Positions 4,750 to 26,849 of a stretch of DNA of 28,931 bases are shown here, one piece after another; position 1 is the first letter of the stretch; every line of letters starts with the position of its first letter. The position numbers and the translations under genes are program-made. The notes below the pieces were generated by a model, which was not told where the DNA came from, made no database searches, and saw only the letters and a program-made list of their open reading frames with translations. The stretch covers positions 1 to 28,931 of the forward strand of contig JACCXN010000023.1 of the NCBI GenBank assembly GCA_013696965.1, written 5' to 3'. This DNA is from Bacteroidota bacterium (GTDB lineage Bacteria; Bacteroidota; Bacteroidia; JACCXN01).

Positions 4750-5493
4750 ATGAAAAAGAAATCAGGAACATTAAAAAGAATTTTAAAATCCCTGTTAAAG
4801 GCAATTATTGGCTTGTTTGTTTTTAGTTTACTTATTGTCTTGGTATTTAAATGGGTTCCTGTTCCAGTTACTCCATTAATGTTAATAAGGCTGGCAGAAC
4901 AAGGCATTGAGGGGAAAGATTTCAAACTCAAAAAAGATTGGGAACCATTAGATAAAATAGCTCATTTGCCACTAGCAGTGGTAGCTTCCGAAGATCAGCG
5001 TTTCCCCCATCATTGGGGATTTGATTTTGAATCCATTGAAAAAGCTTTCAAAGCAAATAAAAAAGGCAAAAGGATTAAAGGCGCTAGTACAATAAGCCAA
5101 CAAACAGCTAAAAATGTTTTTTTATGGCAGGGACGAAATTATTTAAGAAAAGGCCTCGAGGTATATTTTACAGCCCTTATTGAACTTATTTGGGGAAAAG
5201 AAAGAATCCTTGAAGTTTACCTGAATGTAATAGAAATGGGTGATGGTATATACGGGGCACAGGCCGCCTCTCAAGCTTATTTTAAAAAAAATGCCTCTAA
5301 TATTTCATCTCAACAAGCAGCCCTTATAGCGGCAATACTACCAAACCCAAGAAAATATTCCGCTCATAAGCCCTCAGGTTACATTCAAGGTAGGCAACAA
5401 TGGGTTTTAAGGCAAATGAGAAATATTGGAAAACTGGATTTTGAGCCACAAGAAAAATCACAAGAAAAGCCAAAAAAAAGAAAAGGCAAGTAA
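4750..5493 (+). CDS. mtgA: Monofunctional peptidoglycan glycosyltransferase (GT51)
   Basis: 247 residues, the usual MtgA size. It polymerises lipid II into glycan strands at the periplasmic face of the inner membrane. A lysine-rich N-terminus is followed by one membrane helix (about residues 12-36). The GT51 motifs appear in order: ASEDQRFPHHWGFD at 79-92 with catalytic Glu81, GASTISQQTAKN at 111-122, and KERILEVYLN at 150-159 with the second essential Glu, then GIYGAQAAS. There is no transpeptidase domain, so it is not a class A PBP. The tail is very lysine-rich (EKPKKRKGK). It is monocistronic, with its own promoter, and ends 43 bases from a convergent gene. Confidence 0.93.
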   Translation: MKKKSGTLKRILKSLLKAIIGLFVFSLLIVLVFKWVPVPVTPLMLIRLAEQGIEGKDFKLKKDWEPLDKIAHLPLAVVASEDQRFPHHWGFDFESIEKAFKANKKGKRIKGASTISQQTAKNVFLWQGRNYLRKGLEVYFTALIELIWGKERILEVYLNVIEMGDGIYGAQAASQAYFKKNASNISSQQAALIAAILPNPRKYSAHKPSGYIQGRQQWVLRQMRNIGKLDFEPQEKSQEKPKKRKGK

Positions 5494-9336: not shown

Positions 9337-9975
9337 ATGAAGAAAATTATTTTATTGTTTGTCCTGTTTGTAGGGGTTTGCTTTGGGTCTCAAGCTCAGT
9401 TTTTACACGCTTATGGCGCAACCCTAGGTATTACCAGAGCAACGGAAATAGGATGGCTTTCTGCTTCTGATACTCCTCAAAAAATGAAATACCGAACAGG
9501 ATTTAACGGAAGTTTGTTTTTGGAATTTTTTAATCATGATGTTTTCACCTGGGTTATGGAAGCCCAATACAATCAAAAAGGAGTAAGAATGCTTGATGAA
9601 TTTGGCAATGTTGATTTCAAACACAGGACCAATTATGGCAGTTTTAATAATTTTTTAAAAGCAAGAGCAGAGGGTATAGACATAAATTTGTATGTTTTAG
9701 CAGGACCACGCATTGAATATTTGATTTCTCAAAATTCCACTTTACCTTTTAATCAATTGCATTTTAGTATTTCAGGTGGAGTAGGTTGTGATTTTAATTA
9801 TTGGGAACCCATTATCTTTTTTACCGAAGTGCATTTTAACCCTGATATTACCCCTTCTGCTAATGTAGGTCGCGGACAAACTATCAGAAATCGGGCCTTG
9901 GAATTAAGAATAGGAATTAAAAAGAAAATTCAATCAGGACGTAATAGAGATGTTTGTCCGCCCGTTTTTCTATAA
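9337..9975 (+). CDS. Outer-membrane beta-barrel protein, function unknown
   Basis: 212 residues. A clear signal peptide (MKKIILLFVLFVGVCFGSQAQ) is followed by alternating hydrophobic/polar strands rich in aromatic residues and ending in polar turns. Segments such as SLFLEFFNHDVFTWVMEAQYNQKG and INLYVLAGPRIEYL show this pattern, as in the PorT-like barrels common in Bacteroidota. The tail (RNRDVCPPVFL) is not the usual strand-ending phenylalanine pattern. It may be co-transcribed with fabD, 45 bases upstream. Its last 6 bases overlap the end of the convergent phosphatase gene. Confidence 0.7.
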   Translation: MKKIILLFVLFVGVCFGSQAQFLHAYGATLGITRATEIGWLSASDTPQKMKYRTGFNGSLFLEFFNHDVFTWVMEAQYNQKGVRMLDEFGNVDFKHRTNYGSFNNFLKARAEGIDINLYVLAGPRIEYLISQNSTLPFNQLHFSISGGVGCDFNYWEPIIFFTEVHFNPDITPSANVGRGQTIRNRALELRIGIKKKIQSGRNRDVCPPVFL

Positions 9976-10716
9976 TTGGCTGTTTAAAAGGTTCTCCTTT
10001 TTTAAAATTTTATTCAGGTATTTTTCTTTTCTGCACTGTTCAAGCAAATTTACGTGATTCATGTTATGGCAATCACTTCCTAATAATTCAATCATGTCTT
10101 CATCCACCATTCGTTCAGCAATTTTTTTTGTGTCCAGTGAATAATGGCCAGTAAGGGAATTGATATTCATTTGAAACAACACTCCTTTTTCCTTGAGTTC
10201 GTAATATTTATTAAAATCCCTGTACCAATAGGTATATCTTTCTGGATGAGCCAAAACCGGCTTGTAACCATTGGTTTGCATTAAAAAAATCGCATTGTTT
10301 AATGAATCAGAAGGACTTAAAAATCCCAATTCAAATAAAACATATTTATCCCCAAAGGTTAATAATTTATTTTGATCAATTTTTTGTTCAAAATCAAAAT
10401 CAAGATAATATTCTGCTGCGGCTTCCAACTCAATTTCAATACCTGCATTTTTCACAGCTTCTCTTAATTTTGCAAGTCCTGATAAAATAATTTCAGGTGT
10501 GTTTTTGTAATAATCACTCATTACATGTGGGGTTGTTATTAATTTTTGATAACCCTGTGATTTAAAATAGTCAATTATTTGCAGGGATTCTTCCATAACT
10601 TGTGCTCCGTCATCAATACCAGGTATTAAATGGGAGTGTATATCACATTTTAATACGGATAAATCAGCAGGGGCAAATTTGGGCTTTGGGAAAAATAAAC
10701 TACTTATGAAACTCAT
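9970..10716 (-). CDS. PHP-domain tyrosine phosphatase, CpsB/YwqE family
   Basis: 248 residues. Metal-dependent PHP phosphatases of this family dephosphorylate tyrosine kinases that control capsule and exopolysaccharide export. The metal-binding CDIHSHLIPGIDDGA (24-38) carries Asp25, His27, His29 and the Asp pair; TTPHVM, the HPERY segment near residue 157 and the late SDCH provide the remaining ligands. It lies apart from, but in the same orientation as, the nucleotide-sugar operon beginning 0.8 kb to the right, and no Wzc-like kinase is in the window. A TATCTTTT sequence (10735-10742) could be its -7 box with one mismatch. Its stop overlaps the convergent barrel gene by 6 bases. Confidence 0.85.
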   Translation of the reverse strand: MSFISSLFFPKPKFAPADLSVLKCDIHSHLIPGIDDGAQVMEESLQIIDYFKSQGYQKLITTPHVMSDYYKNTPEIILSGLAKLREAVKNAGIEIELEAAAEYYLDFDFEQKIDQNKLLTFGDKYVLFELGFLSPSDSLNNAIFLMQTNGYKPVLAHPERYTYWYRDFNKYYELKEKGVLFQMNINSLTGHYSLDTKKIAERMVDEDMIELLGSDCHNMNHVNLLEQCRKEKYLNKILKKENLLNSQL

Positions 10717-11536: not shown

Positions 11537-12517
11537 TTAATATTTTTGCTCAAACCAATCCAGAGTAATTTTTAAACCTTGCTCAAAATTCACTGTCGGT
11601 TCATATGCTAATAAGTTCTTAGCCTTTGTTATATCAGCCAATGAATCCCTAACATCTCCCTTTCGTTCATTTTTAAATTCAGGCTCCACGGAAGCCTGGG
11701 TTAATCCCTTTAGAATAGTGAACATATCTAAAATAGATGTCCTATCCCCATAAGCAATATTAAAAACTTCCCCCAAAGCTTCTGTATGCTTAGTGAAAAG
11801 TGCCTTAATATTCGCTTGTACTGCATTCTCAACAAAAGTAAAATCCCTGGTTTGTTTGCCATCACCAAATATTTTTGGTGAAATATTATTTTTTAAGGCA
11901 TCCATAAACAAAGGAATTGCTGCTGCATAAGCTCCCTTAGGATTTTGCCTTGGTCCAAAAATATTGAAATATCTTAATCCAATTACTTCTGTCCCATATA
12001 CTGATGCATAAACACCAGCATAAAGTTCATCTATATATTTAGAAACGGCATAAGGTGATAAAGGCTTTCCTATTTGTTCCTCTGTTTTTGGAAGGATCTT
12101 ACTATCGCCATATACAGAGGAGGAACTTGCATAAACAATACGCTTAACCCCTGATTCCTTTGCTGCTGTAATGATGTTTAAAAAACCACTTGCATTTACG
12201 CTGTTTGTTGCAAGTGGGAATTCTATGGAACGAGGCACAGAACCAAGAGCTGCCTGATGTGATATAAAATCAATATCCTCGCAGGCATTCATGCATGTGG
12301 CATAATTTTCAATTGAGCCTTTAACAAGTTCAATTTTATTTAAAAAAGGTTCCAGGTTTTCTAGAAATCCGGTTGACAAATCATCAAGAACCTTGATTTT
12401 TCCTGCATTATATTTTACAAGGTATTCAACAATATTTGAACCGATAAAACCTGCCCCACCCGTAATTAAAAATTTATATTTACTTAAATCGCTTGAATGA
12501 TAAGGTTTTTCGAACAT
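11537..12517 (-). CDS. wbpP: UDP-GlcNAc 4-epimerase, WbpP type
   Basis: 326-residue extended short-chain dehydrogenase/reductase, cytoplasmic. WbpP-type enzymes interconvert UDP-GlcNAc and UDP-GalNAc. GGAGFIGSN (20-28) binds NAD; SSSSVYGD and Tyr156-x3-Lys160 (SPYAVSK) form the catalytic site. SHQAALGSVPRS (86-97) and GLRYFNIFGPRQNPKGAYAA are strongly WbpP/TviC-like. It is the last gene of the operon, 7 bases after rfbB and just before the terminator. With the WbpO-type dehydrogenase upstream it would give UDP-GalNAcA. Epimerases of this group differ in substrate preference, so UDP-GlcNAcA as substrate (TviC-like) remains possible. Confidence 0.82.
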   Translation of the reverse strand: MFEKPYHSSDLSKYKFLITGGAGFIGSNIVEYLVKYNAGKIKVLDDLSTGFLENLEPFLNKIELVKGSIENYATCMNACEDIDFISHQAALGSVPRSIEFPLATNSVNASGFLNIITAAKESGVKRIVYASSSSVYGDSKILPKTEEQIGKPLSPYAVSKYIDELYAGVYASVYGTEVIGLRYFNIFGPRQNPKGAYAAAIPLFMDALKNNISPKIFGDGKQTRDFTFVENAVQANIKALFTKHTEALGEVFNIAYGDRTSILDMFTILKGLTQASVEPEFKNERKGDVRDSLADITKAKNLLAYEPTVNFEQGLKITLDWFEQKY

Positions 12518-12524
12518 CTTTAAT

Positions 12525-13589
12525 TTACCTGTTTATATATTGGCTTTGGTAATAATTCTGGTATTCACCTGAAGTAACTAAATCAAGCCAGGTGTTATTA
12601 TTCAAGTACCATTCCACTGTTTTTTCCAGGCCCTGTTCAAAGTTCACTGAAGGTTGCCATCCTAATTCTTTTTGCAATTTAGAGGAATCAATTGCATAAC
12701 GCATATCGTGACCGGCACGATCCTTAACAAAAGTGATGAGTTTTATTGAACTGCCTTCTTCACGATTTAATTTTTTGTCCATAATGGAACAAAGCAAATT
12801 AATAAGGTCAATGTTTTTCCATTCATTGTTTCCTCCAATATTGTATGTTTCTCCTGTTTTGCCTTTATGAAAAATTTGATCAATTGCCCTTGCATGATCA
12901 TTCACCCACAACCAATCCCGAATATTTTCTCCTTTGCCATAAACTGGAATAGGTTTATTGTTTTTTATATTATGAATGGCAAGAGGTATTAACTTTTCTG
13001 GAAATTGATGCGATCCATAATTGTTTGAACAATTGGAAATTACAACTGGCAATTTATAAGTATGGTGCCAGGCTCTTACCAGGTGATCTGAACTTGCTTT
13101 TGATGCTGAATAAGGGCTTCTGGGATCATAGGAAGTTTCTTCAGTGAAAAAACCTTCAGCTCCTAAGGATCCATAAACCTCATCTGTTGAAATATGATAA
13201 AATAAATTATTTCCCGTATTTGAGTTTTCCCATGATTTCCTGGAAGCATTCAAAAGATTAACAGTTCCTATAATATTGGTATTTATAAAATCCATAGGAC
13301 TGGCAATTGATCTATCCACATGTGATTCTGCCGCAAGATGGATAACATGGTCAATTGCATGTGTTTCAAACAATGTATATATGAAATCCGCATCTACAAT
13401 ATCACCCTTTACAAACTGGTAGTTAGGAGCATCTTCAACATCCTTTAAATTAAGCAGGTTGCCTGCATAGGTTAGCTTATCTAAATTGATAATTCTATAC
13501 TCAGGGTATTTATTCAGGAATAAACTTATTACATGCGAGCCAATAAAACCTGCTCCTCCTGTGACTAAAATTATTTTGGTGAAATTCAT
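12525..13589 (-). CDS. rfbB: dTDP-glucose 4,6-dehydratase
   Basis: 354 residues, close to the RfbB norm. It converts dTDP-glucose to dTDP-4-keto-6-deoxyglucose, the branch point to rhamnose and amino-deoxy sugars. VTGGAGFIGSH (9-19) binds NAD; the diagnostic Thr135-Asp136-Glu137 triad (STDEVYG) and Tyr160-x3-Lys164 (YSASK) are intact. The segments SNCSNNYGSHQFPEKLIPL and GENIRDWLWVNDHA are typical of the dTDP-glucose enzyme. The usual companions rfbA, rfbC and rfbD are absent from the window, so the final sugar cannot be deduced. It starts 2 bases after galE and ends 7 bases before the WbpP-like gene. Confidence 0.92.
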   Translation of the reverse strand: MNFTKIILVTGGAGFIGSHVISLFLNKYPEYRIINLDKLTYAGNLLNLKDVEDAPNYQFVKGDIVDADFIYTLFETHAIDHVIHLAAESHVDRSIASPMDFINTNIIGTVNLLNASRKSWENSNTGNNLFYHISTDEVYGSLGAEGFFTEETSYDPRSPYSASKASSDHLVRAWHHTYKLPVVISNCSNNYGSHQFPEKLIPLAIHNIKNNKPIPVYGKGENIRDWLWVNDHARAIDQIFHKGKTGETYNIGGNNEWKNIDLINLLCSIMDKKLNREEGSSIKLITFVKDRAGHDMRYAIDSSKLQKELGWQPSVNFEQGLEKTVEWYLNNNTWLDLVTSGEYQNYYQSQYINR

Positions 13590-13591
13590 TT

Positions 13592-14641
13592 TTAAGCGGG
13601 TGTATTCGTTTTTTGATTAAGGGCAAGCTCCCATTTCCATGCTGTTAGCATCATATTATCCAGATCACGTTCAGCCTTCCAATTTAATTCTTTATTTGCA
13701 TAAGTTGTATCGGCATAAATTTTCTCAACATCTCCTGGTCTTCGTTGAACTATTTTATAGTTTAATTTTTCCCCACTTACTCTTTCAAAGCTATGAATTG
13801 TATCCAACACGGAATATCCTATGCCTGTTCCCAGATTGAATATTTCATTTTTTGATTTGTTTTTATTGTCCATTAATCTTTCCAGTGCAATTAAATGAGC
13901 TTTGGCCAAATCCACAACATGAATGTAATCCCTAATGCAGGTTCCATCCGGAGTATTGTAATCACCTCCAAAAACCTGCAATTCATCTCTTTTTCCTACT
14001 GCTGTTTGAGTAATAAAGGGTACAAGATTATTGGGTTTTTCAATAGGCAATTCGCCAATCATGGCTGAATCATGTGCCCCTGTAGGGTTGAAATATCTTA
14101 ATGAAATAGAATTAAGGAATGTAGCTTTAACAGTATCGGAAATAATTTTTTCACTCATTTGTTTAGTTTCCCCATATGGAGATGAGGATTTTTGCAAGGG
14201 GGTATTTTCATCAACAGGCAATTTATCGGGTTGACCATAAACTGTACAAGAGGAAGAAAATACAAGATTGGGTATTTCAATTTCCTTCATGGCCTCAAGT
14301 ACATTTACCAATGAAAAAATATTGTTTTTATAATAAAGCAATGGATTTTCAACCGATTCACCTACTGCTTTAAAAGCTGCAAAATGTATAACGGCCTTTA
14401 AGTCCTTGTGTTTTTTAAAAAGTGATTGTGTTTGTTCTCTTTCACAAAGTTCAGTAAACTCAAAAACAGGACGCTTTCCTGTTATCTTTTCTATAGAGTC
14501 AATTACGCTTTCAGAAGAATTTGAAAAATTATCGGCTATAATTACATCAAATCCTTTTTGTTGTAATTCAACTACAGTATGAGAACCAATATAACCTGTT
14601 CCTCCTGTTACTAAAACTTTATCCCCTTTTTTCATTGTCAA
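13592..14641 (-). CDS. galE: UDP-glucose 4-epimerase
   Basis: 349 residues, a normal GalE length. It interconverts UDP-glucose and UDP-galactose (some members also UDP-GlcNAc/UDP-GalNAc). VTGGTGYIGSH (11-21) is the NAD motif; HFAAFKAVGESV (86-97), SSSCTVYGQP and Tyr156-x3-Lys160 (SPYGETK) are the classical GalE signatures, followed by SLRYFNPTGAH and CIRDYIHVVDLA. An ATG two codons downstream (14635) is an equally possible start. The gene lies 16 bases after the nucleotide-sugar dehydrogenase and 2 bases before rfbB, inside the operon. Confidence 0.93.
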   Translation of the reverse strand: MTMKKGDKVLVTGGTGYIGSHTVVELQQKGFDVIIADNFSNSSESVIDSIEKITGKRPVFEFTELCEREQTQSLFKKHKDLKAVIHFAAFKAVGESVENPLLYYKNNIFSLVNVLEAMKEIEIPNLVFSSSCTVYGQPDKLPVDENTPLQKSSSPYGETKQMSEKIISDTVKATFLNSISLRYFNPTGAHDSAMIGELPIEKPNNLVPFITQTAVGKRDELQVFGGDYNTPDGTCIRDYIHVVDLAKAHLIALERLMDNKNKSKNEIFNLGTGIGYSVLDTIHSFERVSGEKLNYKIVQRRPGDVEKIYADTTYANKELNWKAERDLDNMMLTAWKWELALNQKTNTPA

Positions 14642-14657
14642 TGTTTATCAAAAAAAA

Positions 14658-15947
14658 CTAAAGACTCCAATAACTCAGATCTTTGATTTTATTGCGGTAC
14701 ATGCCTTTTACATCAACAATTATTCCTTTTTCTGAACTAATACTTTTGAAATAATTTTCATCAAGACCAATATATTCTTTATGATTTACAGCCACAATAA
14801 CTGCATCATATTTTTTATCAGCTTTTTTATGAAGTCCAAATCCATACTCATGATTCAATTCTTCTGAAGATGCATGGGGGTCAACAATTTCAACAGCAAC
14901 ACCAAAGGATTTTAACTCCTTTATAACATCCGCAACTTTTGAATTTCTAATATCACTCACATCTTCTTTAAATGTTGCTCCCATTACAAGGACTACAGCT
15001 TGATTTAGGTCTTTTTTTGCAGCTATAATCTTTTTAACCGTTTGTTTGGCAATATAAAAGCCCATGGAATCATTTACATATCTTCCCGAATTAATTACCC
15101 TTGCATGATAACCCAATGATTCTGCCTTATAGGTTAAATAATAAGGATCAACACCAATGCAATGGCCACCAACTAATCCTGGAAAAAACTTTAAAAAGTT
15201 CCATTTTGTACCTGCCGCTTCAAGCACTTCATATGTATTTATTCCCATTCTGTTAAAAATAATGGAAAGTTCATTCATAAGGGCAATATTAACATCTCTT
15301 TGGGTGTTTTCGATAATTTTAGCTGCTTCGGCAACCCTTATAGAAGAGGCCTTATGAACTCCAGGCTCTACAATTATTTCATATACTTTAGAAATTTCAT
15401 CAAGCGCTTCAGCATCACATCCTGAAACTACTTTAAGTATTTTTGTAATGGTATGCTCCTTATCTCCTGGATTTATCCGTTCGGGGGAATAACCTGCTTT
15501 AAAATCAGTTTTAAATTTCAATCCCGATAGTCTTTCCAATACAGGTACACAATCCTCTTCCGTACATCCTGGATATACAGTAGATTCATACACTACATAA
15601 TCTCCTTTTTTTAAAGCTGAACCTACAGATTCAGAAGATTTAAGCAAAGGGGTTAAATCAGGCAGGTTATGCTCATTAATGGGTGTTGGAACCGCCACAA
15701 TGAAAAAATTAGCTTGCCTTAATACCTCTAGAGAAGATGTGAAAACTATATCACAACCTTTAAAGGATTCAGCTGGAAGTTCATTGCTGGGATCAACATT
15801 ATTACGCATCATTTCAAGACGTTCATCATTAATATCAAAACCAATCACTGATGTTTTTTTTGCGAATTCTAGTGCAATTGGCAATCCAACATAGCCAAGA
15901 CCTATTACAGCAATTTTTGCTTCCTTATTTATTATTTTGTTGTACAT
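14658..15947 (-). CDS. wbpO: UDP-N-acetylhexosamine 6-dehydrogenase (WbpO/TviB type)
   Basis: 429 residues of the UDP-glucose/GDP-mannose dehydrogenase family, oxidising C6 of a UDP-sugar to the uronate with two NAD. GLGYVGLP (16-23) binds NAD; VPTPINEHNLPDLTP (86-100), YESTVYPGCTEEDCVPV (120-136), AGYSPERINPGDKEH and KIIENTQRD are WbpO/TviB-like. Catalytic Cys263 lies in GGHCIGVDPYY. This branch acts on UDP-GalNAc (WbpO) or UDP-GlcNAc (TviB) rather than UDP-glucose; sequence by eye cannot decide. The neighbouring Gfo/Idh oxidoreductase and WbpD-like acetyltransferase would favour UDP-GlcNAcA, whereas the WbpP-like epimerase favours UDP-GalNAcA. Confidence 0.85.
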   Translation of the reverse strand: MYNKIINKEAKIAVIGLGYVGLPIALEFAKKTSVIGFDINDERLEMMRNNVDPSNELPAESFKGCDIVFTSSLEVLRQANFFIVAVPTPINEHNLPDLTPLLKSSESVGSALKKGDYVVYESTVYPGCTEEDCVPVLERLSGLKFKTDFKAGYSPERINPGDKEHTITKILKVVSGCDAEALDEISKVYEIIVEPGVHKASSIRVAEAAKIIENTQRDVNIALMNELSIIFNRMGINTYEVLEAAGTKWNFLKFFPGLVGGHCIGVDPYYLTYKAESLGYHARVINSGRYVNDSMGFYIAKQTVKKIIAAKKDLNQAVVLVMGATFKEDVSDIRNSKVADVIKELKSFGVAVEIVDPHASSEELNHEYGFGLHKKADKKYDAVIVAVNHKEYIGLDENYFKSISSEKGIIVDVKGMYRNKIKDLSYWSL

Positions 15948-15976
15948 TATTTTTAAAACTAATATTACTATTAATA

Positions 15977-17020
15977 CTATTTACTATTATTATCACTATT
16001 TCGAAGAGCGTAAATTCTTTCAATTATATCAACTACTTTGAGTCCCTCTAGCGCGTTTGTTGTTGCTATTGTTCTTCCTTTTAATGTGTCCACTACATTT
16101 TCTATAACAAAATGATGATTAGCTGCCGATCCTTTATAATATCCATAATCATTCGCAGGGCTTGCCTCTGCTAGTTCTGGCATTGTATAATCCTTCACGT
16201 GACAGTACTCAACTTCATTCATATACTGCCCGCCAATTTTTATGCTCCCTTTACTTCCAATTATTGTAATACTACTCTCAAGGTTTGTGTCCCATACTGC
16301 CGTTGAATAATTAATACAACCCATTCCACCATTGATGAAATTAAAATTTACAAATCCTGAATCCTCAAAATCTGTAAGTTCCTTATGACTGAAATCCTCA
16401 AACTTGGCCTGAATGTCTTTGATGTCACCAAATAGCCAATACATTATATCTATAAAATGCGAGAACTGTGTAAACAAGGTCCCTCCATCTAAATCATTTT
16501 TTCCCTTCCAACTGTCTTTTTTATAATAACGTTCATCTCTATTCCAATAGCAGTTAAGCTGAACCATGTATATATCTCCAAGCAATCTCCTTTCCAATAC
16601 ATCTTTTATCCAAACCGATGGGGGAGAATACCTGTTTTGCATTACACAAAAAAAGTGTTTTGAAACCTGGAGGGACTTAAAAATGATTGCTTCACATTCT
16701 GATTTGGTTAAACCCATTGGCTTTTCACACACCACATGTTTTTTGTTTTCCAGCATCTTCATAGATTGTTTTGCGTGAAACCCGTTTGGAGTACAAATAT
16801 TAACCACATCATATTCAATCCCTGAGTTTAGCAATTCCTCAATGGATTGAAAAAAAGGAACTTCAAATGCCAGAATTCCGCATTCTTCAGCAGAACGGAT
16901 ATCACACAGAGCAACAAGCTCTGCTTCTGGATTTCTGATTATCATTTCAGCATGTCGTTTACCAATATGCCCTGTGCCAATTATGGCAAATTTTACTTTT
17001 TTGTTTTCTTGAATTAACAT
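15977..17020 (-). CDS. Gfo/Idh/MocA oxidoreductase, probable UDP-GlcNAcA 3-dehydrogenase (WbpB/WlbA-like)
   Basis: 347 residues. GTGHIG (15-20) is the Rossmann NAD motif and CEKPMG (98-103) carries the catalytic lysine of the Gfo/Idh/MocA family. The C-terminal domain has CYWNRDERYY, WKGKNDLDGGTLFTQFSHF and MYWLFGD, a pattern I associate with the UDP-N-acetyl-2-amino-2-deoxyglucuronate 3-dehydrogenases that precede an aminotransferase. The product would be the 3-keto sugar. It lies between the WbpD-like acetyltransferase (34 bases upstream) and the uronate-forming dehydrogenase (29 bases downstream), consistent with that pathway. A minus-strand TAATTTTG just upstream may be an internal promoter. 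Confidence 0.75.
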   Translation of the reverse strand: MLIQENKKVKFAIIGTGHIGKRHAEMIIRNPEAELVALCDIRSAEECGILAFEVPFFQSIEELLNSGIEYDVVNICTPNGFHAKQSMKMLENKKHVVCEKPMGLTKSECEAIIFKSLQVSKHFFCVMQNRYSPPSVWIKDVLERRLLGDIYMVQLNCYWNRDERYYKKDSWKGKNDLDGGTLFTQFSHFIDIMYWLFGDIKDIQAKFEDFSHKELTDFEDSGFVNFNFINGGMGCINYSTAVWDTNLESSITIIGSKGSIKIGGQYMNEVEYCHVKDYTMPELAEASPANDYGYYKGSAANHHFVIENVVDTLKGRTIATTNALEGLKVVDIIERIYALRNSDNNSK

Positions 17021-17040
17021 TTTATCGGGGTAGTGTGTCG

Positions 17041-17048
17041 CAAAATTA
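17041..17048 (-). promoter_or_regulatory. Possible internal promoter in the sugar operon
   Basis: Minus-strand TAATTTTG fits TAnnTTTG, 20 bases before the oxidoreductase ATG. A TTG lies 23 bases further upstream (17072-17074), slightly beyond the usual spacing. Confidence 0.35.
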
Positions 17049-17054
17049 ATTTTT

Positions 17055-17639
17055 CTAAGTTAATTTACTTACAATACCTGCTTTTATTTTGTATTTTTCT
17101 TTGCTTTCCTCACATTCCGCAATGCCATTGGCATCGAATTCCAACTTATGCCCGTATTCGCTCATCCATCCTGCCTGTCGTGCCGGATTTCCAATTACAA
17201 GAGCATAAGATGGTACATTTTTAGTAACAACAGAACCAGCACCAATAAATGCATATGCACCAATATCATGACCACACACAATGGTAGCATTTGCTCCTAT
17301 AGATGCTCCTTTGCCAACATGGGTTTTTGTATATTGGTTTTTACGTATTACCGCACTCCTTGGATTGTTAACATTCGTAAAAACCATAGACGGACCAAGA
17401 AAAACATCATCATCACAAGTAACCCCAGTGTAAATGGAGACATTATTCTGGACTTTTACATTGTTTCCCAAGATTACCTCTGGGGATACAACTACGTTTT
17501 GGCCGATATTGCATTGGTTGCCGATTTTACATCCTGGCATAATATGAGAAAAATGCCAGATTTTAGTTCCTTCTCCGATATTGCAGCCCTCGTCTATCAC
17601 TGCAGTTTCATGGGCAAAGTATTTTTTTTCAGTTTTCAT
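17055..17639 (-). CDS. wbpD: UDP-3-amino-sugar N-acetyltransferase, WbpD/WlbB type
   Basis: 194 residues folding as a left-handed beta helix: isoleucine/valine-led hexapeptides run from about 15 to 150 (IGEGTK, IGNQCN, IGQNVV, LGNNVK, VGKGAS, IGANAT). The family transfers acetyl from acetyl-CoA to the 3-amino group of UDP-GlcNAc3NA. WHFSHI (28-33), IGQNVVVSPEVILGNNVKVQ and FLGPSMVFTNVNNPRS are WbpD/WlbB hallmarks. The short C-terminal tail after the helix lacks the cysteine pairs some homologues have. Its ATG overlaps the stop of the uxs gene (TAATG), indicating translational coupling. Its substrate needs an aminotransferase that is not in the window. Confidence 0.82.
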   Translation of the reverse strand: MKTEKKYFAHETAVIDEGCNIGEGTKIWHFSHIMPGCKIGNQCNIGQNVVVSPEVILGNNVKVQNNVSIYTGVTCDDDVFLGPSMVFTNVNNPRSAVIRKNQYTKTHVGKGASIGANATIVCGHDIGAYAFIGAGSVVTKNVPSYALVIGNPARQAGWMSEYGHKLEFDANGIAECEESKEKYKIKAGIVSKLT

Positions 17640-18616
17640 TAAGCAAATCGATGTTCTGTTTTATATAATTCTTCCTCTGGAAGATTTTTAAAATAGTTAT
17701 ATGTTATTTTTAATCCATCAGCTCTATTAACCTTTGGCTCCCATCCTAATAAAGCAATAGCCCTGGAAATGTCAGGTTTCCTTTGTTTGGGATCATCTGT
17801 TGGTAAATTCTTGTAAATCATTTTTTGATTGGTATTTGTGAGTTTTATAATTTCCTCCCCAAATTCACTTATAGTAATTTCATCCGGATTGCCAATATTT
17901 ACAGGATTAGCATAATCACTTAACAACAATCGGTAAATTCCTTCAATTAAATCATCCACATAACAAAAAGATCTGGTTTGACTACCATCTCCAAAAACAG
18001 TTAAATCTTCCCCCCTTATGGCCTGGCCTATAAAGGCTGGTAAAACTCTTCCATCATTTAATCGCATTCTGGGTCCATAAGTATTGAAAATTCTTACAAT
18101 TCTTGTTTCTACCGCATGATAAGTATGATAGGCCATAGTAATAGCTTCCTGAAACCTTTTGGCCTCATCATAAACCCCTCTGGGGCCCACAGGATTTACA
18201 TTTCCCCAATAGTCCTCATCTTGTGGATGCACAAGAGGATCTCCGTACACCTCTGAGGTAGAGGCAACAAGAATTCTTGCTCCTTTGGCTTTTGCCAGCC
18301 CTAATAAATTATGTGTTCCAAGTGAACTAACCTTGAGTGTTTGAATTGGTATCTTTAAATAATCAATAGGGCTTGCAGGTGATGCAAAATGTAGAATATA
18401 TTCTAAATCTCCAGGTACATGTACATATTTGGAAACATCGTGGTGATAAAATTCAAATTGTTCTAATTTAAAAAGATGCTCAATATTGCGCATGTCCCCA
18501 GTAATTAAGTTGTCCATACCAATTACATGGTAACCTTCTTTAATAAACCGGTCACATAAATGAGAGCCTAAAAAGCCAGCTGCTCCAGTTATTAATACCC
18601 TTTTTCTTTTTGCCAT
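17639..18616 (-). CDS. uxs: UDP-glucuronate decarboxylase (UDP-xylose synthase)
   Basis: 325 residues, an extended SDR that decarboxylates UDP-glucuronate to UDP-xylose (or its 4-keto intermediate). [58 protein letters not shown] (Tyr-x3-Lys) and [10 protein letters not shown] are UXS signatures. An upstream in-frame ATG at 18667 would add 17 residues, but the promoter boxes lie within that stretch, so 18616 ([11 protein letters not shown]) is chosen. It is the first gene of the sugar operon, and its stop overlaps the next start as TAATG. No specific UDP-glucose 6-dehydrogenase is seen; the WbpO/TviB-type enzyme is unlikely to supply UDP-glucuronate. Confidence 0.9.
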
Positions 18617-18634
18617 ATTTCTTTTATTTGAAAA

Positions 18635-18667
18635 CAAATTTACACCTTCCATCATATTTACAGTCAA
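18635..18667 (-). promoter_or_regulatory. Main promoter of the nucleotide-sugar operon
   Basis: On the minus strand TTG (18667-18665), a 22-base spacer and TAAATTTG (18642-18635). The uxs ATG at 18616 follows after 18 bases. This fits the Bacteroidota consensus and decides the uxs start. Confidence 0.65.
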
Positions 18668-20319: not shown

Positions 20320-23307
20320 CTATTTTTGATATATTAATTTCAGCGTAATTGCTGGGTTGCTTTCCGGAATAATTTGAATAAAATAAAGTCCTTCGGAAAT
20401 ATTTTCTTTTAAAAAGTCAAATTCAAAATGATTCATTCCTTTTAACAGGAACATTTCTTTATTCTCGATTTCCCTTCCGCTATTATCGAATAGAATGAAT
20501 TTTATTTTTTGATCAGATGGATTGTTAAAAATAACGTTTGCCTTATTAGAAGTTGGGTTCGGATGAATTTTAGTGTTTGCAGCAAAATGGTTTTCCGTTA
20601 ATCCTCCAGTATTCAAATCAACAATTTGGCCATCAGAATTGCTTATAGAGGAAAGTAATCCTGCTTCATTTATAGCTTGAATACTAAAATAATAAGTTTG
20701 TCCATGAGTTAAGCTTAGGCCTGTATGAGTAACAAATGAATTAATAGAATTATCTGTCCAGTTAACAACATCAGCTAAACCAGCGGAAGTGCCAATGGAA
20801 TATAAATATTTTTCTAATCCTGAATGTGGATCAAAGCTTGGTAACCAATTAGCAGATAGTTCACCAGAGGATAGGGTATAATTAATATCACTTCCGGTTC
20901 CATCATTTACAATAGTTACATCATCAGGGGCTGTCCAATCTACATTTACAAACATACTGGTAAGGGTAGATATATTTCCAGCACTATCACTAACAACCGA
21001 TTTAATGATACCAGCAGAAGTAAGTGGATCCATATTTTGATACCTAATATCATCATTGTTGTTTAACCCTACATTAACTGTTGAATTAGAAGATCGTGAT
21101 CTTAAAACGCTTAAACTATCAACGGACCAATTGCAATTACCACTTCTGAAAGAAATATGAGTGCCATTTTGATAAGGAGCTGGATCAATCCAGGATAGAA
21201 CAGGTAAATTGTCAATCCATACTTGGGCTTTACCAGTAATCCTGTCAAATGAAACTTTATAATCATACCATTGACCTTCATTAACTGTATAACTAATATC
21301 CTCAACAAGGGTAAACACATCGTTTGCTACTTTATAGAACTGAACCTTATTGTTGTCTGTTCTAAAATAGACAAAATAGGAATTGCCCCTGTTAGGCAAT
21401 GAAGGGTTATCAGAAAAGAAATGCAATCCTGCCCTTTTGTTTGTTCCTGTTCCTTCTATTTTCCCTTTCCAATGATATAAATACCTGTTAGATAAATTTT
21501 GTGTTAAAGCCGTAGAAATATTAGTATTGTCTAAGGCTTCATTGGATTGAACAAGAAAACTATTGCTTGTATTCCATGTTCCGCTATAATTTATCCAATC
21601 AGCATGAATAACAGTATTGAAATTATCAGTAAAAAAGCCCCTTGAAGAATTGGAACGCCATTCATCCCCATTGAAATCAGAAACAGTATAAAAACTTTTA
21701 TCAACTCCGCTTCCTGATTGATTGTCACTGTCTAAAAAGGAAACCAAAAAATCCTGGGTAACCCAGGTTGCAACAGGTGTAATTTGAGTAGTCGGAGAAA
21801 CAGCATCCATAATGCAATTCCAGGTTGCTCCCCATCCACTTCCAACTCCGGATGCATTGGATTTAAAACTTAAAGTTAAAGCATTGCCCAGGGAATTGAT
21901 TGTTGCAGGCAAATTTGCGCCTGTGTAATTCCCAATAAGGCTGGTGCCAACTGAATTGCCATTATATATTTTTAAAGTATCTCCGGTTCCCAAATTAAAA
22001 GAACTGAAATTCATATTAACCTGCGTTGCACCTGTTGGTGAAATAACAAATGTAAAATTTTCATCATTGTAATAATCTCCCATGGGGCCGCCCATATCGT
22101 AAATTGTGTCTGTGCAGGAAATAACTGAACAATTAGTAAACTTTTCTTCAATTTTATTCCACAAATCGGTATATCCATCATCTCCACCTAATGACCAAAT
22201 GCCAATTCCTCCAATATTTCTTTGATTTACCATATCATACCTTTTGCCTAAAGTAAATGCATTGTTTATAAAGCACTGTCTCCAATTAGAGCCTGAATAA
22301 TAAGTATGGTAATTAGTCATACTTTTTAAATAAAAGTTTGGGTTAGAATAATTCCCACTGCTATTGTCTTTAATAAACTTGTAAGTTCTGGCTGCCACAT
22401 GACTAGTAGCATTTGAAGGAACAAGGTCTGTTGTGGTATTCCATTCCCTCCCATAATAGGGTAAACCTAAAATTAATTTAGAATTGGGAATGCCTTTATT
22501 CAAATAGGTATTTATGCTCCTGGAAATATTTTGAGAAGATACTGTTGCATCAAAGGTATATGCCGGATCTGTAGGTCCAGCCTGAGTACTTCCACCCCAA
22601 TAATAATCATAACCCATAATAATAAATAGATCTATATATGGATTCATTGCAGCTACATCAAAGGCATTTCCCCAGTCAACTGCGGGAAGAGCAATTGAAA
22701 CCTGGGAATTTGGTATAGCAGCATGCATTTGGTTACATAGGTTTGTGATAAAAGTTGTTAAGTTGTTTTTTTGAGCCGAGGCCATTTCCTCAAAATCTAT
22801 ATTTACTCCATGTGCTCCCCTTGCCTGAACAAGATTTATAAGGTTGGTTATGAGTGTTTGCTGGGCTGTTGCATTAGTTAAAAATGTGGTATGATTGGAA
22901 CTTCCAAAAAGCGTTACACATAAATTTACCCTCACTCCATTTGCAAGGGCACTAGTTACAGATGCTGCAGTTGACCAGCTATTCGTAGTATATGCCTGAC
23001 CATTATTTGGATTAACATCATAAGAAAAATAAGAAAAATCAGTCAATAGATCCCATTGATAATTAGTTTGTAATCCATTCATCCAATAGGGATGCCAACC
23101 AAAAACAATTTTATTAAGTTGGCAGTTTCTTTTTTGCTGCAAAGGCATTAAAACTGCCTGATTTAACTGTTCATATTCACTTGCAGAAATATTTATGCTT
23201 TTGTATTGTTCATGCAGTTCCTTGTGCAAAGATTTTATTTCAGGAACTTGCGAAAAAAGCATCGTTGGGGCAATGAAAATCATTGCAAGAGCAATTGTTT
23301 TGTTCAT
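20320..23307 (-). CDS. T9SS-secreted GH18 glycosidase with CUB-like, Ig/LamG-like and FN3 domains
   Basis: 995 residues with a signal peptide (cut near FSQ, residue 20). Residues 65-395 are a GH18 barrel: FGWHPYWMNG start, catalytic HGVNIDFEE at 166-174 (Asp171, Glu173), MGYDYYW at 231-237 and the closing IGGIGIWSLGGDDG. The catalytic line reads GVNIDFE rather than the DGxDxDxE of classical chitinases, as in spore-cortex/peptidoglycan glucosaminidases of the YaaH/SleL kind. A CUB-like domain (about 396-498), one ~285-residue module shared with the neighbouring amidase (505-792), an FN3-like domain (793-897) and a T9SS sorting domain (907-995, IHPNPTS...GLYFIQI) follow. It begins 20 bases after the amidase gene. 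Substrate could be chitin or peptidoglycan glycan; context favours the latter. Confidence 0.85.
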   Translation of the reverse strand: MNKTIALAMIFIAPTMLFSQVPEIKSLHKELHEQYKSINISASEYEQLNQAVLMPLQQKRNCQLNKIVFGWHPYWMNGLQTNYQWDLLTDFSYFSYDVNPNNGQAYTTNSWSTAASVTSALANGVRVNLCVTLFGSSNHTTFLTNATAQQTLITNLINLVQARGAHGVNIDFEEMASAQKNNLTTFITNLCNQMHAAIPNSQVSIALPAVDWGNAFDVAAMNPYIDLFIIMGYDYYWGGSTQAGPTDPAYTFDATVSSQNISRSINTYLNKGIPNSKLILGLPYYGREWNTTTDLVPSNATSHVAARTYKFIKDNSSGNYSNPNFYLKSMTNYHTYYSGSNWRQCFINNAFTLGKRYDMVNQRNIGGIGIWSLGGDDGYTDLWNKIEEKFTNCSVISCTDTIYDMGGPMGDYYNDENFTFVISPTGATQVNMNFSSFNLGTGDTLKIYNGNSVGTSLIGNYTGANLPATINSLGNALTLSFKSNASGVGSGWGATWNCIMDAVSPTTQITPVATWVTQDFLVSFLDSDNQSGSGVDKSFYTVSDFNGDEWRSNSSRGFFTDNFNTVIHADWINYSGTWNTSNSFLVQSNEALDNTNISTALTQNLSNRYLYHWKGKIEGTGTNKRAGLHFFSDNPSLPNRGNSYFVYFRTDNNKVQFYKVANDVFTLVEDISYTVNEGQWYDYKVSFDRITGKAQVWIDNLPVLSWIDPAPYQNGTHISFRSGNCNWSVDSLSVLRSRSSNSTVNVGLNNNDDIRYQNMDPLTSAGIIKSVVSDSAGNISTLTSMFVNVDWTAPDDVTIVNDGTGSDINYTLSSGELSANWLPSFDPHSGLEKYLYSIGTSAGLADVVNWTDNSINSFVTHTGLSLTHGQTYYFSIQAINEAGLLSSISNSDGQIVDLNTGGLTENHFAANTKIHPNPTSNKANVIFNNPSDQKIKFILFDNSGREIENKEMFLLKGMNHFEFDFLKENISEGLYFIQIIPESNPAITLKLIYQK
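20617..20931 (-). repeat. FN3-like domain shared with the amidase (GH18 copy)
   Basis: Residues 793-897 of the GH18 protein. Shared blocks with amidase residues 974-1080 include VNDGTG-DIN, ELSANW, YSIGTSAG, WTDN-IN-FV-H-GL, GQTYYF and SDGQ-VD. It is a protein-level paralogous segment. Confidence 0.7.
20932..21795 (-). repeat. Shared Ig/LamG-like module, GH18 copy
   Basis: Residues 505-792. It shares GSGVD-FY, EWR-N--GFF-DNFN, ALTQNLSNRYLY, HFFSDN-SL-NRGNSY, FYKV-NDVF and WYDYKV with the amidase copies, and ends D-AGN-S and VDWTAP. It resembles amidase copy B more than A and B resemble each other. Confidence 0.75.
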
Positions 23308-23327
23308 AAATCTTGAGTTAGTGCTGT

Positions 23328-26300
23328 TTAATTCGCTTTGATTATCTTTAGTTGCCTGGTTCCCCCAGGTGTTATAAGTTGAAGTGTATAAACACCCGGA
23401 GAAAAATCCTTTCCGTTAACAACAAAATTATGATCGCCTTTTGCTTGTAATTCCGTATTATACAACATGAAAGTTTTGCCTAACATATCAATCATCATTA
23501 TTTTTAAGGGCTGAGCTTGTGTTAATGAAAATCTAATTTGAATAGAGGAATTAAATGGGTTCGGTAGGGCAACAAATGAAATAAAAGGATTTACACCTTT
23601 AAGACCCGCAGGAATATCAACCGTTTGACCATCTGATGAATTTACTGTAGAATACAACCCGGCTCCATTTTCAGCCCTTACATTGAAATAATAAGTTTGT
23701 CCTGGATTTAGTAACAATCCAGAATGTGAAACAAATGTATTTATCCCGTTATCAGTCCATACCACTCCATCTGTAGCTCCTGCTGAGGTTCCAATGGAAT
23801 ACCAATATTTAATGATACCTGAATTTTCATCATTAGAGGATGCCCAGTTTGCTGATAGTTCTGTAGTTGAATTTACAAAATTAATATCTGCACCAGTTCC
23901 ATCGTTAACATAATTTATTTCATCTGGAGCAGTCCAATCTACACGCAAATCATTATAATGAATGGCAGAAATATTATCAGCCATATCAGTTACAATGGAT
24001 TTTATTTTAGCAGCATGGCTGGTCGGATTAATATTTTGAAATCTTATATCATTTGTGGATCCCGGACCAACAGATACTGTTAAAGAAGGAAATCTGGTAC
24101 GGTAAATTTTAAGATTATCCACTTCGAAATTACTGTTCCCGCCCCTGAAAGAGATATAATTTCCATTTGAAATTGGATTAGGATCTGTCCAGTTTCCAAT
24201 ATTTTCATCATCTCTGTAAACCTTTATTTCGCCATTTATCCGGTCATAAATTATTTTATAGTCATACCATTGTCCTGGATTGATGTTTATACCAATTACT
24301 TTTTGCTGAGCAAATACATCATTGGTTACTTTGTAAAATTCCAAAGTGTTATCATCAAGCCTGAACCAAATAAAATATGAATTTCCACGATTTGCTAAGG
24401 AAGCATCATCACTGAAAAAATGAAATCCAGCTCGTCTGTTTGTTCCTGAACCATCAATTTTTCCTTGAAAATTATATAAATACCGATTTGAAAGATTTTG
24501 TGTTAAGGCTGCAAAAATATTACTGTTGTTTTCATTTTCATCTGATTGAACAAGTTTCCCTGCGGCAATATTCCAGGTGCCTTTTGCTTGGGTCCAGTCA
24601 GTATGTATGGCATTATCAAAATTGTCGCTGTAAAATCCTCTTGATGCATTCGCTCTCCATTCTGTTCCTTGATTTTCAAGAATCTGATAAAATCTTCTAT
24701 CAATACCACTTCCATTTAAATTGTCTTCATCAGTAAATTCAGTAGTAAAATCTGTTGTTTGCCATGATTCTTGAACCGAAGATGATGTGGATGGAAATGT
24801 CCAATCTATAAAAATGTTTTGAGCAACTTCACTGGAAAAATTGCCTGCAACGTCTTTTATTAGTGTATTTACTCTACATGCCTCTGTAGTGGAATTAATG
24901 CTTTCATATTGAATATCCTTTCCTCCAGTGGGACCTACAGTTATATTTACAGTAGCATTCCTTGATTTTCGGACTTTTACATTGTCAAATTGCACTTCTG
25001 AATCTCCGTTTCTTAATGAAATATATTCTCCTGAAGTAAGTGGAGTAGGGTCAGTCCAATTGGCCACTAAAAGGTTATCCATCCATACTTCTATTTTTCC
25101 ATTCAGCGGATTGTAAATTACTTTATAGTCATACCAAGTGTTTGCATTTATTGTAAGGGCTAAATCTACTTTAAGACTAAGAACATTATTCTCTGTTTCG
25201 TAAATTTGAATCTTATTATCATCAGCCCTAAACCATACAAGGTAAGAATTCCCCCTATTTGCTAAAGCCGCATTATCAGAAAAGAAATGAAGTCCTGATC
25301 TTCTGTTTGCTCCTGTGCCATTCATGTTTGCAGACCATTGATATAAATATGAATTGGAATTGTTTTGATTAACAGATGTGCTGATGTTAGAATTTGTATT
25401 TAATTGGTCTGATTGCAAAAGTCTGCCGTTTACTATGCTCCAAGTTCCTGAATGGCTGGTCCATTCTGGATGTATGGTGCTGTTGAAATTATCATTAAAA
25501 AAACCATTTTGTCCATTTGCTCTCCATTCTGTTCCTGTATATTCCATTGCTTGATAAAATCTCAAATCCACTCCGCTTCCGGATAAATCATCAAGGTCAT
25601 TAAAAGTAAGTGAAAAGTCAGATGATTGCCAAAGGTTTCCCAATGTGTTAATCGAAGTAGTGGGGGGAATGTTATCTGGAGATGTGGTGCAAGCATCAAT
25701 AATAGCTTTAGTAGCTGTTCGTAAATTTGGTAATTGACCATATAAAGTTGTTCCTGGGCACGAAGTTTGTCCTATATCAAGATGACCGCATATTCTTGGC
25801 TTTACCTGGTATCCAAAAGCCTGAGTAGTCATTCCTGCAGAGGTAGTTGGGTCGAGGTTTTTGTGCTTAAACCACCAGGCCATCATTGCAGTGCATTTGT
25901 CTATTTGTACAGTAGTAGGTAAAGTAACATCTGCATTTCCAATAAATGAAATTCCAATTGAACCACTATTTGCATTTCCTGCATGTGCCCCCCTTACATC
26001 AGAAGTCGGTAAATTGGGGTTTTTTCTGCCTTGATATAAATTCCCATATTTATCTGTTAAATAATTGTATCCAATATCTGCCCATCCTAGTGTATTAACA
26101 TGGTAATTCCAATAGGAGCGCACAATTGATGGCCCATCTGTATATGTATTTGGCGAAGCGCCATGATGAATTACGATATGAGTAGCATCAATATAAGTAA
26201 CAGCATAATTGGCATTATGACAATCAGTGTAGCTTCCGCACCAATCAGAACGAGGAATTATGGTTGGTAAAGTAGGACAACTTGATCTTAAGGTTTCCTG

Positions 26301-26849
26301 GGTTTCTTCTTTTTTATCTTTTTCAATCCATTCAGGAATGGCATAATCATTCGTTGTGTTTAAAATATCAACCCGTGAAAAATTAATCTTTGCCTTCTCA
26401 TATGCAATTAAATGTATTTCAATTGCGGAATGAATTGTTGCATCATTGGTAAAAAGTAATTCGCTCCAATATAATCCGGTTGGAGTTTCTTCTGGAGCAA
26501 CTTCGCCATCACTGCTTATCCATTCCTTCCAAATTCCATCTAATCCTTTTACTCTGTAATTTATTTTAAATTCGCCAGGTTTTATCCCTTTTTCAGAAGA
26601 TTCCCATCCAATACCAAAACAATTAAAATCAATGGGTGATTCTATAAGAAAGACATATGAACCTTCATTGTTTTTCCTTAGGTTAGTTTCTTCCCATTCT
26701 ATAATATAAGAAGGAGACTCTCTCCTTTGATGATCATTAGTAATTTTATTAGCTCTTGGAGATATTCCTTCATGATTTCTACCATTTTGAGCATAAATAA
26801 AGGTAAATGAAGAAATAATTATAACAGATAAAATGTAAATTTTTTTCAT
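23328..26849 (-). CDS. T9SS-secreted PGRP-type N-acetylmuramoyl-L-alanine amidase with duplicated Ig/LamG-like module
   Basis: 1173 residues. A signal peptide ends near FIYAQ (residue 21). Residues 40-160 are a beta-rich domain of a type often preceding PGRP domains. Residues 195-390 are an amidase_2/PGRP domain: IIPRSDWCG, IVIHHG with zinc ligand His228, WADIGYNYLTDKYGNLYQGR, GNANSGSIGISFIGN, and CGHLDIGQTSCPG with His356 and Cys364. The complete His/His/Cys set predicts active cleavage of the MurNAc-L-Ala bond. Two copies of a ~285-residue module (401-683 and 690-973), an FN3-like domain (974-1080) and a T9SS sorting domain (1089-1173, ALPNPFNSS...PGVYTLQL) follow. It heads the operon, and a TAAATTTG box lies 34 bases upstream. 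Natural target is either prey or competitor wall, or the cell's own wall. Confidence 0.88.
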   Translation of the reverse strand: MKKIYILSVIIISSFTFIYAQNGRNHEGISPRANKITNDHQRRESPSYIIEWEETNLRKNNEGSYVFLIESPIDFNCFGIGWESSEKGIKPGEFKINYRVKGLDGIWKEWISSDGEVAPEETPTGLYWSELLFTNDATIHSAIEIHLIAYEKAKINFSRVDILNTTNDYAIPEWIEKDKKEETQETLRSSCPTLPTIIPRSDWCGSYTDCHNANYAVTYIDATHIVIHHGASPNTYTDGPSIVRSYWNYHVNTLGWADIGYNYLTDKYGNLYQGRKNPNLPTSDVRGAHAGNANSGSIGISFIGNADVTLPTTVQIDKCTAMMAWWFKHKNLDPTTSAGMTTQAFGYQVKPRICGHLDIGQTSCPGTTLYGQLPNLRTATKAIIDACTTSPDNIPPTTSINTLGNLWQSSDFSLTFNDLDDLSGSGVDLRFYQAMEYTGTEWRANGQNGFFNDNFNSTIHPEWTSHSGTWSIVNGRLLQSDQLNTNSNISTSVNQNNSNSYLYQWSANMNGTGANRRSGLHFFSDNAALANRGNSYLVWFRADDNKIQIYETENNVLSLKVDLALTINANTWYDYKVIYNPLNGKIEVWMDNLLVANWTDPTPLTSGEYISLRNGDSEVQFDNVKVRKSRNATVNITVGPTGGKDIQYESINSTTEACRVNTLIKDVAGNFSSEVAQNIFIDWTFPSTSSSVQESWQTTDFTTEFTDEDNLNGSGIDRRFYQILENQGTEWRANASRGFYSDNFDNAIHTDWTQAKGTWNIAAGKLVQSDENENNSNIFAALTQNLSNRYLYNFQGKIDGSGTNRRAGFHFFSDDASLANRGNSYFIWFRLDDNTLEFYKVTNDVFAQQKVIGININPGQWYDYKIIYDRINGEIKVYRDDENIGNWTDPNPISNGNYISFRGGNSNFEVDNLKIYRTRFPSLTVSVGPGSTNDIRFQNINPTSHAAKIKSIVTDMADNISAIHYNDLRVDWTAPDEINYVNDGTGADINFVNSTTELSANWASSNDENSGIIKYWYSIGTSAGATDGVVWTDNGINTFVSHSGLLLNPGQTYYFNVRAENGAGLYSTVNSSDGQTVDIPAGLKGVNPFISFVALPNPFNSSIQIRFSLTQAQPLKIMMIDMLGKTFMLYNTELQAKGDHNFVVNGKDFSPGVYTLQLITPGGTRQLKIIKAN
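23610..23930 (-). repeat. FN3-like domain shared with the GH18 protein (amidase copy)
   Basis: Residues 974-1080, colinear with GH18 residues 793-897 with few gaps. The conserved blocks are those given for the GH18 copy. The segment continues directly from module B. Confidence 0.7.
23931..24782 (-). repeat. Shared Ig/LamG-like module, amidase copy B
   Basis: Residues 690-973. It opens SWQTTDFTTEFTDEDN and GSGIDRRFYQ, carries ALTQNLSNRYLY, HFFSDDASLANRGNSYF and FYKVTNDVF, and ends with D-ADNIS and VDWTAP. Confidence 0.75.
24801..25649 (-). repeat. Shared Ig/LamG-like module, amidase copy A
   Basis: Residues 401-683. It opens LWQSSDFSLTFNDLDD and GSGVDLRFYQ, carries HFFSDNAALANRGNSYL and TWYDYKV, and closes KDVAGNFS and IDWTFP. 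It is the most diverged of the three copies (for example SVNQNNSNSYLY in place of ALTQNLSNRYLY). Confidence 0.75.

What the first reader, a model, noticed from the sequence alone, without database searches (positions are those of the whole stretch)
20932..25649. Three copies of a ~285-residue module shared by two adjacent secreted wall-lytic enzymes
Seen: amidase residues 401-683 and 690-973 and GH18 residues 505-792 align along their whole length, with blocks such as HFFSDN-SL-NRGNSY, WYDYKV and GFF-DNFN. The GH18 copy resembles amidase copy B more than A resembles B, and the following FN3-like domain is shared too, while the T9SS tails have diverged. Inference: duplication inside the amidase, followed by transfer or gene conversion of copy B plus FN3 into the neighbour. 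The module probably targets both enzymes to the same ligand, plausibly a cell-wall glycan or glycoprotein.
Basis: partly seen in the sequence, partly recalled or inferred. Interest (0 to 1): 0.75.

Follow-up and report, generated by a model that had tools for sequence, protein, structure and literature searches.

The report
Shared sugar-binding module on wall-cutting enzymes
Two neighbouring genes encode exported enzymes that cut bacterial cell walls, and both carry copies of one old, unnamed, lectin-like module that related bacteria also put on several other kinds of wall- or chitosan-cutting enzyme, so it is probably a reusable wall-targeting part of an exported lysis kit rather than the result of a recent gene conversion here.

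Summary
A ~295-residue module occurs twice in the amidase (23922-24797, 24789-25676) and once in the adjacent GH18 enzyme (20923-21807), at 45-52% identity; the following FN3 is 61% identical and the T9SS tails only 30%. The module recurs in over a quarter of sampled Bacteroidia genomes but has no full-length Pfam or NCBIfam model. Its predicted structure (pLDDT 96) is a CBM66-like lectin sandwich (Z 22) inserted into what looks like an Ig-type domain.

Of 143 module-bearing ORFs examined, 138 have an assignable catalytic part, nearly all wall or amino-sugar-polymer enzymes: two Amidase_2 types, Amidase_3, GH18, GH25, SpoIID, GH75-type chitosanase, C39-type. Amidase then GH18 is a recurring gene pair (20 of 26 testable loci). 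Of about 144 T9SS-tail proteins in the window's genome, only these two carry the module; they are its only Pfam-detectable Amidase_2 and GH18.

Copies A and B lie in different deep clades, each with its own counterpart in other genomes. The GH18 copy is closer to foreign amidase modules (60%) than to copy B (52%). Wall targeting is well supported by association; the ligand is untested.

The parts
20320..23307 (-). GH18 gene: signal-like N-terminus, GH18, CUB, module, FN3, T9SS type A tail
22138..23127 (-). GH18 catalytic domain (aa 61-390), motif HGVNIDFEE; nearest solved relative is B. subtilis YdhD
   Evidence: Pfam E 7e-31; PDB 3cz8 E 6e-18; GxNxDFE motif kept in all 35 GH18 hits examined
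21808..22122 (-). CUB domain (aa 396-500)
   Evidence: Pfam PF00431 E 1e-10
20923..21807 (-). Module, GH18 copy (aa 501-795)
   Evidence: AF2 model pLDDT 96.4
21100..21633 (-). Inner lectin-like sandwich of the GH18 copy (model residues 59-236), CBM66 fold
   Evidence: Foldseek and VIA-align to 4b1m, Z 22.2, rmsd 1.9, 158 residues
20617..20922 (-). FN3-like domain of the GH18 protein
   Evidence: weak fn3 hit; 61% identical to the amidase FN3
20353..20568 (-). T9SS type A sorting tail of the GH18 protein
   Evidence: PF18962 / TIGR04183
23328..26849 (-). Amidase gene: N-domain, Amidase_2, module A, module B, FN3, T9SS tail; 20 bp upstream of the GH18 gene
25686..26279 (-). Amidase_2 (PGRP-like) catalytic domain (aa 191-388) with Zn-ligand motifs VIHHG and GHLDIGQTSCPG
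   Evidence: Pfam E 3e-16; PGRP3 4zxm E 6e-20; motifs
26325..26729 (-). N-terminal domain without Pfam match (aa 41-175), present in the other amidases of this subtype
   Evidence: phmmer to L105, L113, L142, L143
24789..25676 (-). Module, amidase copy A (aa 392-687)
23922..24797 (-). Module, amidase copy B (aa 685-976)
23616..23921 (-). FN3-like domain of the amidase
   Evidence: no fn3 model passes its cut-off here
23346..23564 (-). T9SS type A sorting tail of the amidase
   Evidence: TIGR04183 E 6e-8, PF18962

Best explanation
The repeated segment is one evolutionary unit of about 295 residues: a CBM66-like carbohydrate-binding beta-sandwich inserted in an Ig-like scaffold, usually followed by FN3 and a T9SS tail. 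Bacteroidia use this C-terminal cassette to export wall-lytic enzymes and hold them on a glycan of the target wall. In the window it is carried by a putative two-gene operon: an N-acetylmuramoyl-L-alanine amidase (two modules; cuts the sugar-peptide bond) followed by a GH18 glycosidase (one module plus CUB; probably cuts the glycan strand). Both enzymes would leave through the T9SS, bind the same polymer on other bacteria or on dead wall material, and cut complementary bonds. Shown: homology, predicted fold, partners, the recurring gene pair, the sorting tails. Inferred: carbohydrate binding, the ligand (peptidoglycan or another GlcNAc/GlcN polymer), and the role in lysing or scavenging other cells. 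The module set is old and has been reshuffled between enzyme types; copies A and B and the GH18 copy were already distinct lineages before the window's own lineage split from its relatives.
For: Copies and homology. Family size: 22 of 60 relatives, 157 confirmed loci in genome contigs, 119 of 396 class genomes at E<=0.001, most with full-length matches. Partners: 143 module ORFs = 85 + 5 Amidase_2 of two subtypes, 33 GH18, 8 GH75-type, 2 SpoIID, 1 Amidase_3, 1 GH25, 3 C39-type, 5 unassigned (Pfam). The 8 'L100N' enzymes match the viral GH75 chitosanase V-Csn at E 2e-53; four acidic residues invariant in them (D67, D69, D182, E191) have nearly the spacing of V-Csn D34, D36, D148, E157 (PMC9485262). 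Gene pair: amidase directly upstream of GH18 in 20 of 26 testable loci. Specificity: about 144 T9SS-tail proteins in the genome, two with the module, which are also its only Pfam hits for Amidase_2 and GH18. Fold. Mostly vertical history: in 14 of 15 tandem pairs each module is closest to the same enzyme type of another genome. Trees.
Against: No binding data. CBM66 of B. subtilis SacC binds fructan ends (PMC10076258), so the fold alone does not point to peptidoglycan, and ConA-like folds also occur in domains that bind no sugar. The GH75 partner acts on chitosan, which could mean a fungal or arthropod target; GH18 enzymes are often chitinases. The Ig-like nature of the outer halves rests on weak matches (E 0.03-0.07) and on strand order in the model.
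Confidence: 0.65

Rival explanations
1. Recent local history: tandem duplication inside this amidase, then transfer or gene conversion of copy B plus FN3 into the neighbouring GH18 gene.
For: GH18 is closer to B than A is to B; FN3 is 61% identical. Such events do occur elsewhere: the pair in L095 and the two genes of G009 (L115/L116) have sister modules.
Against: A and B each have their own counterparts in G002 and G557; A+B clade rejected, p 0.004; GH18 and B are each about 60% identical to foreign modules but 52% to each other; DNA identity of the copies is only 57-61%; the MOD-FN3-tail order is general in the family.
Confidence: 0.08
2. The module binds chitin or chitosan and the system degrades fungal or arthropod material; the amidases are passengers.
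For: GH18 and GH75 partners; CBM-like fold.
Against: Amidases are the commonest partners, and Amidase_3, GH25 and SpoIID act on peptidoglycan. The window GH18 is nearest to YdhD and has GVNIDFE instead of the chitinase DxxDxDxE.
Confidence: 0.13
3. The module is a structural spacer or an anchor to the producer's own surface polysaccharide, not a binder of foreign walls.
For: It sits between enzyme and T9SS tail; an Ig-like scaffold and FN3 suggest a stalk; the copy number is 1-2 per protein; CBM66-type domains can bind other glycans.
Against: Restricted to wall-type enzymes rather than spread over the ~144 T9SS cargoes of the genome; the inner domain is at least as conserved as the outer scaffold.
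Confidence: 0.14

Closest known systems
CBM66 (B. subtilis SacC; PDB 4b1m, 4azz)
   Same: Fold of the inner domain: Z 22, 158 of ~161 residues, rmsd 1.9; non-catalytic module on a glycan-acting enzyme
   Different: 15% identity; here inserted in a second domain; partners are wall hydrolases, not fructanases; ligand untested
Pfam 3keto-disac_hyd PF06439 and Laminin_G_3 PF13385
   Same: A minority of members match (8 and 4 of 74; best E 5e-8 and 4e-11), consistent with a ConA-like fold
   Different: No Pfam model covers the module; the window GH18 copy matches none at E<=0.1
Modular peptidoglycan hydrolases with a separate wall-binding domain used as weapons (e.g. archaeal ones, PMC12352652)
   Same: Exported catalytic domain plus targeting module; GH25 and amidase types
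   Different: T9SS export in Bacteroidia and an unnamed targeting module; the antagonistic role here is inferred only
B. subtilis YdhD and the cortical-lytic GH18 enzyme (3cz8, 4s3j)
   Same: YdhD is the closest solved relative of the GH18 domain, 4s3j also matches; both lack the first Asp pattern of chitinases in the YdhD alignment (GG-VTIDFE versus HG-VNIDFE)
   Different: Exported by T9SS with CUB, module and FN3; substrate untested
F. johnsoniae ChiA, the described T9SS GH18 chitinase (PMC10202324)
   Same: GH18 exported by T9SS
   Different: ChiA has a type C tail according to that review; the window enzyme has a type A tail

Membership tests
CBM66 | Beta-sandwich (ConA-like) fold of CBM66 | tested here: met
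   Best solved match by Foldseek and VIA-align, Z 22
CBM66 | Detectable sequence membership | tested here: inconclusive
   15% identity; profile search of PDB sequences did not return 4b1m; no CBM66-specific model was run
CBM66 | Fructan binding site and fructan ligand | not testable with these tools
   No coordinates or ligand residues to compare
Generic LamG / Laminin_G domain | Curated Pfam match over the domain | tested here: not met
   Window copies match no LamG model; 4 of 74 members match Laminin_G_3 at E<=0.1
Generic LamG / Laminin_G domain | Spread over unrelated proteins | tested here: not met
   2 of ~144 T9SS proteins in the genome; 138 of 143 ORFs have an assigned, nearly always wall-type partner
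Ig-like scaffold (Big_3_2 / OmpL47 type) around the lectin core | Significant profile match of the outer halves | tested here: inconclusive
   E 0.03-0.07, below the cut-offs; 4+3 outer strands in the model
T9SS type A cargo | PF18962 / TIGR04183 tail | tested here: met
   Both proteins above the TIGR04183 cut-off and PF18962
N-acetylmuramoyl-L-alanine amidase (Amidase_2) | Domain match and Zn-ligand motifs | tested here: met
GH18 peptidoglycan glucosaminidase (YdhD/SleL type) | GH18 domain with the catalytic Glu of the motif, nearest to the spore enzymes | tested here: met
GH18 peptidoglycan glucosaminidase (YdhD/SleL type) | Activity on peptidoglycan | not testable with these tools
   needs an assay

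The most novel reading that the evidence does not exclude
The module is an undescribed carbohydrate-binding family (a lectin sandwich nested in an Ig-like domain) specific for bacterial wall glycan, and it marks a T9SS-exported multi-enzyme lysis kit (amidases, glucosaminidase, muramidase, lytic transglycosylase, peptidase, chitosanase) by which many environmental Bacteroidia attack or recycle other cells.
Probability: 0.35. Interest if true: 0.7.

Novelty: new variant of a known kind. Interest (0 to 1): 0.5.

Why it matters
A T9SS review read here lists proteases, chitinases, cellulases and similar cargo; a search of its text for 'amidase' and 'lysozyme' returned nothing, and 'peptidoglycan' only as context (PMC10202324). 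Another review cites rhizosphere Cytophaga-Flavobacterium that profit from B. cereus peptidoglycan and degrade its walls (PMC11205867). A module that tags such enzymes across the class gives a sequence handle for finding wall-lytic cargo in any genome, and an amidase-GH18 gene pair to test. It may also be a new wall-binding domain.

Tried and rejected
Viral contigs: no relative found with copy B. PDB by sequence with the module or its profile: nothing meaningful. Outer halves joined in silico against Pfam, NCBIfam and PDB: only weak Ig-type or chance hits. An uninterrupted copy of the outer domain elsewhere in the fetched ORFs: none. A joined outer domain was not sent to structure prediction, because changed sequences are not accepted there. 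Generic LamG: rejected. Recent duplication plus gene conversion: disfavoured, though the AU test for GH18+B depends on taxon sampling. Apparent presence in Gammaproteobacteria (L042, 'Glaciecola amylolytica'): most of the 12.9-kb locus is collinear with Fluviicola loci at 72-84% DNA identity, so the record looks misnamed. Literature: no paper found that describes the module; the search covers open-licence papers only.

Full report
What is there. Two minus-strand genes lie 20 bp apart: an amidase (23328-26849) and, downstream, a GH18 protein (20320-23307). Pfam gives Amidase_2 and a T9SS tail in the first, and GH18, CUB and a T9SS tail in the second. BLASTP and a three-way alignment confirm one module of about 295 residues three times: GH18 501-795, amidase A 392-687, amidase B 685-976. 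Identities are 52% (GH18-B), 45% (GH18-A) and about 46% (A-B), with alignment scores 94-109 SD above shuffles. FN3 is 61% identical between the proteins and the tails 30%.

How specific it is. The window's genome holds exactly these three copies. It has about 144 T9SS tails above the cut-off, but the module sits on only these two proteins, which are also the genome's only Pfam hits for Amidase_2 and for GH18. It is therefore not a generic domain of exported proteins.

How wide it is. 22 of 60 related genomes, 157 confirmed loci in genome contigs (80 kept) and 119 of 396 genomes of the class have matches; a phylum-wide sample of 395 shows, besides the window's own genome, only weak partial matches, mostly to the lectin core. 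The single 'gammaproteobacterial' hit is a Fluviicola-like locus under what looks like a wrong name.

What it is attached to. Among 143 module-bearing ORFs, catalytic partners are Amidase_2 of the type that usually has a CUB (85), Amidase_2 of the window's subtype (5), GH18 (33), a GH75-type chitosanase (8; E 2e-53 to V-Csn, with four acidic residues invariant at nearly matching spacing), SpoIID (2), C39-type (3), Amidase_3 (1), GH25 (1) and 5 unassigned, most of which run off a contig end or look broken. Part of this set (L133-L152) was picked for unusual ORF length, so the proportions are not a random census, but all sampling routes gave the same kind of partner. The amidase lies directly upstream of GH18 in 20 of 26 testable loci. 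In three of these (L057, L064, L110) the amidase has two CUB domains and no module.

Fold. AlphaFold2 on 74 homologues gives pLDDT 96.4, pTM 0.93. Residues 59-236 match CBM66 (4b1m, Z 22.2, rmsd 1.9) and other lectin sandwiches. The flanking halves (1-56 and 240-297) add about four and three strands and show weak Big_3_2/OmpL47 resemblance, so a lectin core inserted into an Ig-like domain is my inference, not a shown fact.

History. In trees of 79, 50 and 54 modules, copy A groups with copy A of G002 (and of G557) and copy B with their copies B, in different deep clades. Holding A and B (with G002's) together is rejected (p 0.004). The GH18 copy does not join B; AU rejects this in the 50-row set (p 0.006) but not in the 79-row set that has long branches (p 0.33-0.40). 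Best matches of the GH18 copy and of B are foreign modules at about 60%. In 14 of 15 tandem pairs elsewhere, each module is nearest to the same enzyme type in another genome; only L095 looks homogenised. G009 shows the same on two contigs. Enzyme type changes at least 7-8 times for GH18 on well-supported branches, so the module has been moved between enzymes in the past, but the window shows no fresh event.

Mechanism. Both proteins carry a sorting tail for export (shown by homology). The amidase keeps the Zn-ligand motifs and is PGRP-like. The GH18 is closest to YdhD and has GVNIDFE in place of DxxDxDxE, which favours a peptidoglycan rather than a chitin substrate. With a lectin-like module on both, the simplest reading is a secreted pair that binds the same wall glycan and cuts the peptide link and the glycan strand. 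The ligand and the biological role (predation, competition, or use of dead walls) are inferred.

Verdict. Observation confirmed; shared-targeting idea strengthened; recent duplication and gene conversion not supported. A new, unnamed variant of a wall-targeting carbohydrate-binding module, widespread in Bacteroidia.

Noticed in passing
L042 (CP034120.1, 'Glaciecola amylolytica THG-3.7'): The 12.9-kb locus is collinear with Fluviicola loci at 72-84% DNA identity and carries a T9SS amidase; the genome record looks misnamed (Bacteroidota, not Gammaproteobacteria).
   Followed up: partly
L057, L064, L110: The amidase upstream of the GH18+module gene has two CUB domains and no module, as if a CUB had taken the module's place.
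   Followed up: partly
L133-L138, L140, L100: T9SS-exported GH75-type chitosanases (V-Csn-like) carrying the module; in the three scanned (L100, L133, L136) Pfam has no hit for the catalytic domain at E<=0.1.
   Followed up: partly
   Followed up: partly
window 11537-18667 (-): Run of nucleotide-sugar and polysaccharide genes (epimerases, GDP-mannose dehydratase-like, UDP-glucose/GDP-mannose dehydrogenase, MocA oxidoreductase, hexapeptide transferase) downstream of the GH18 gene, with CpsB/CapC at 9970-10716.
   Followed up: no
window 4750-5493 (+): A 247-aa monofunctional Transgly (PF00912) protein, a peptidoglycan glycosyltransferase domain without a transpeptidase domain.
   Followed up: no
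window 26325-26729 (-): N-terminal domain of the amidase (aa 41-175) has no Pfam match but recurs in the same amidase subtype of other families.
   Followed up: partly
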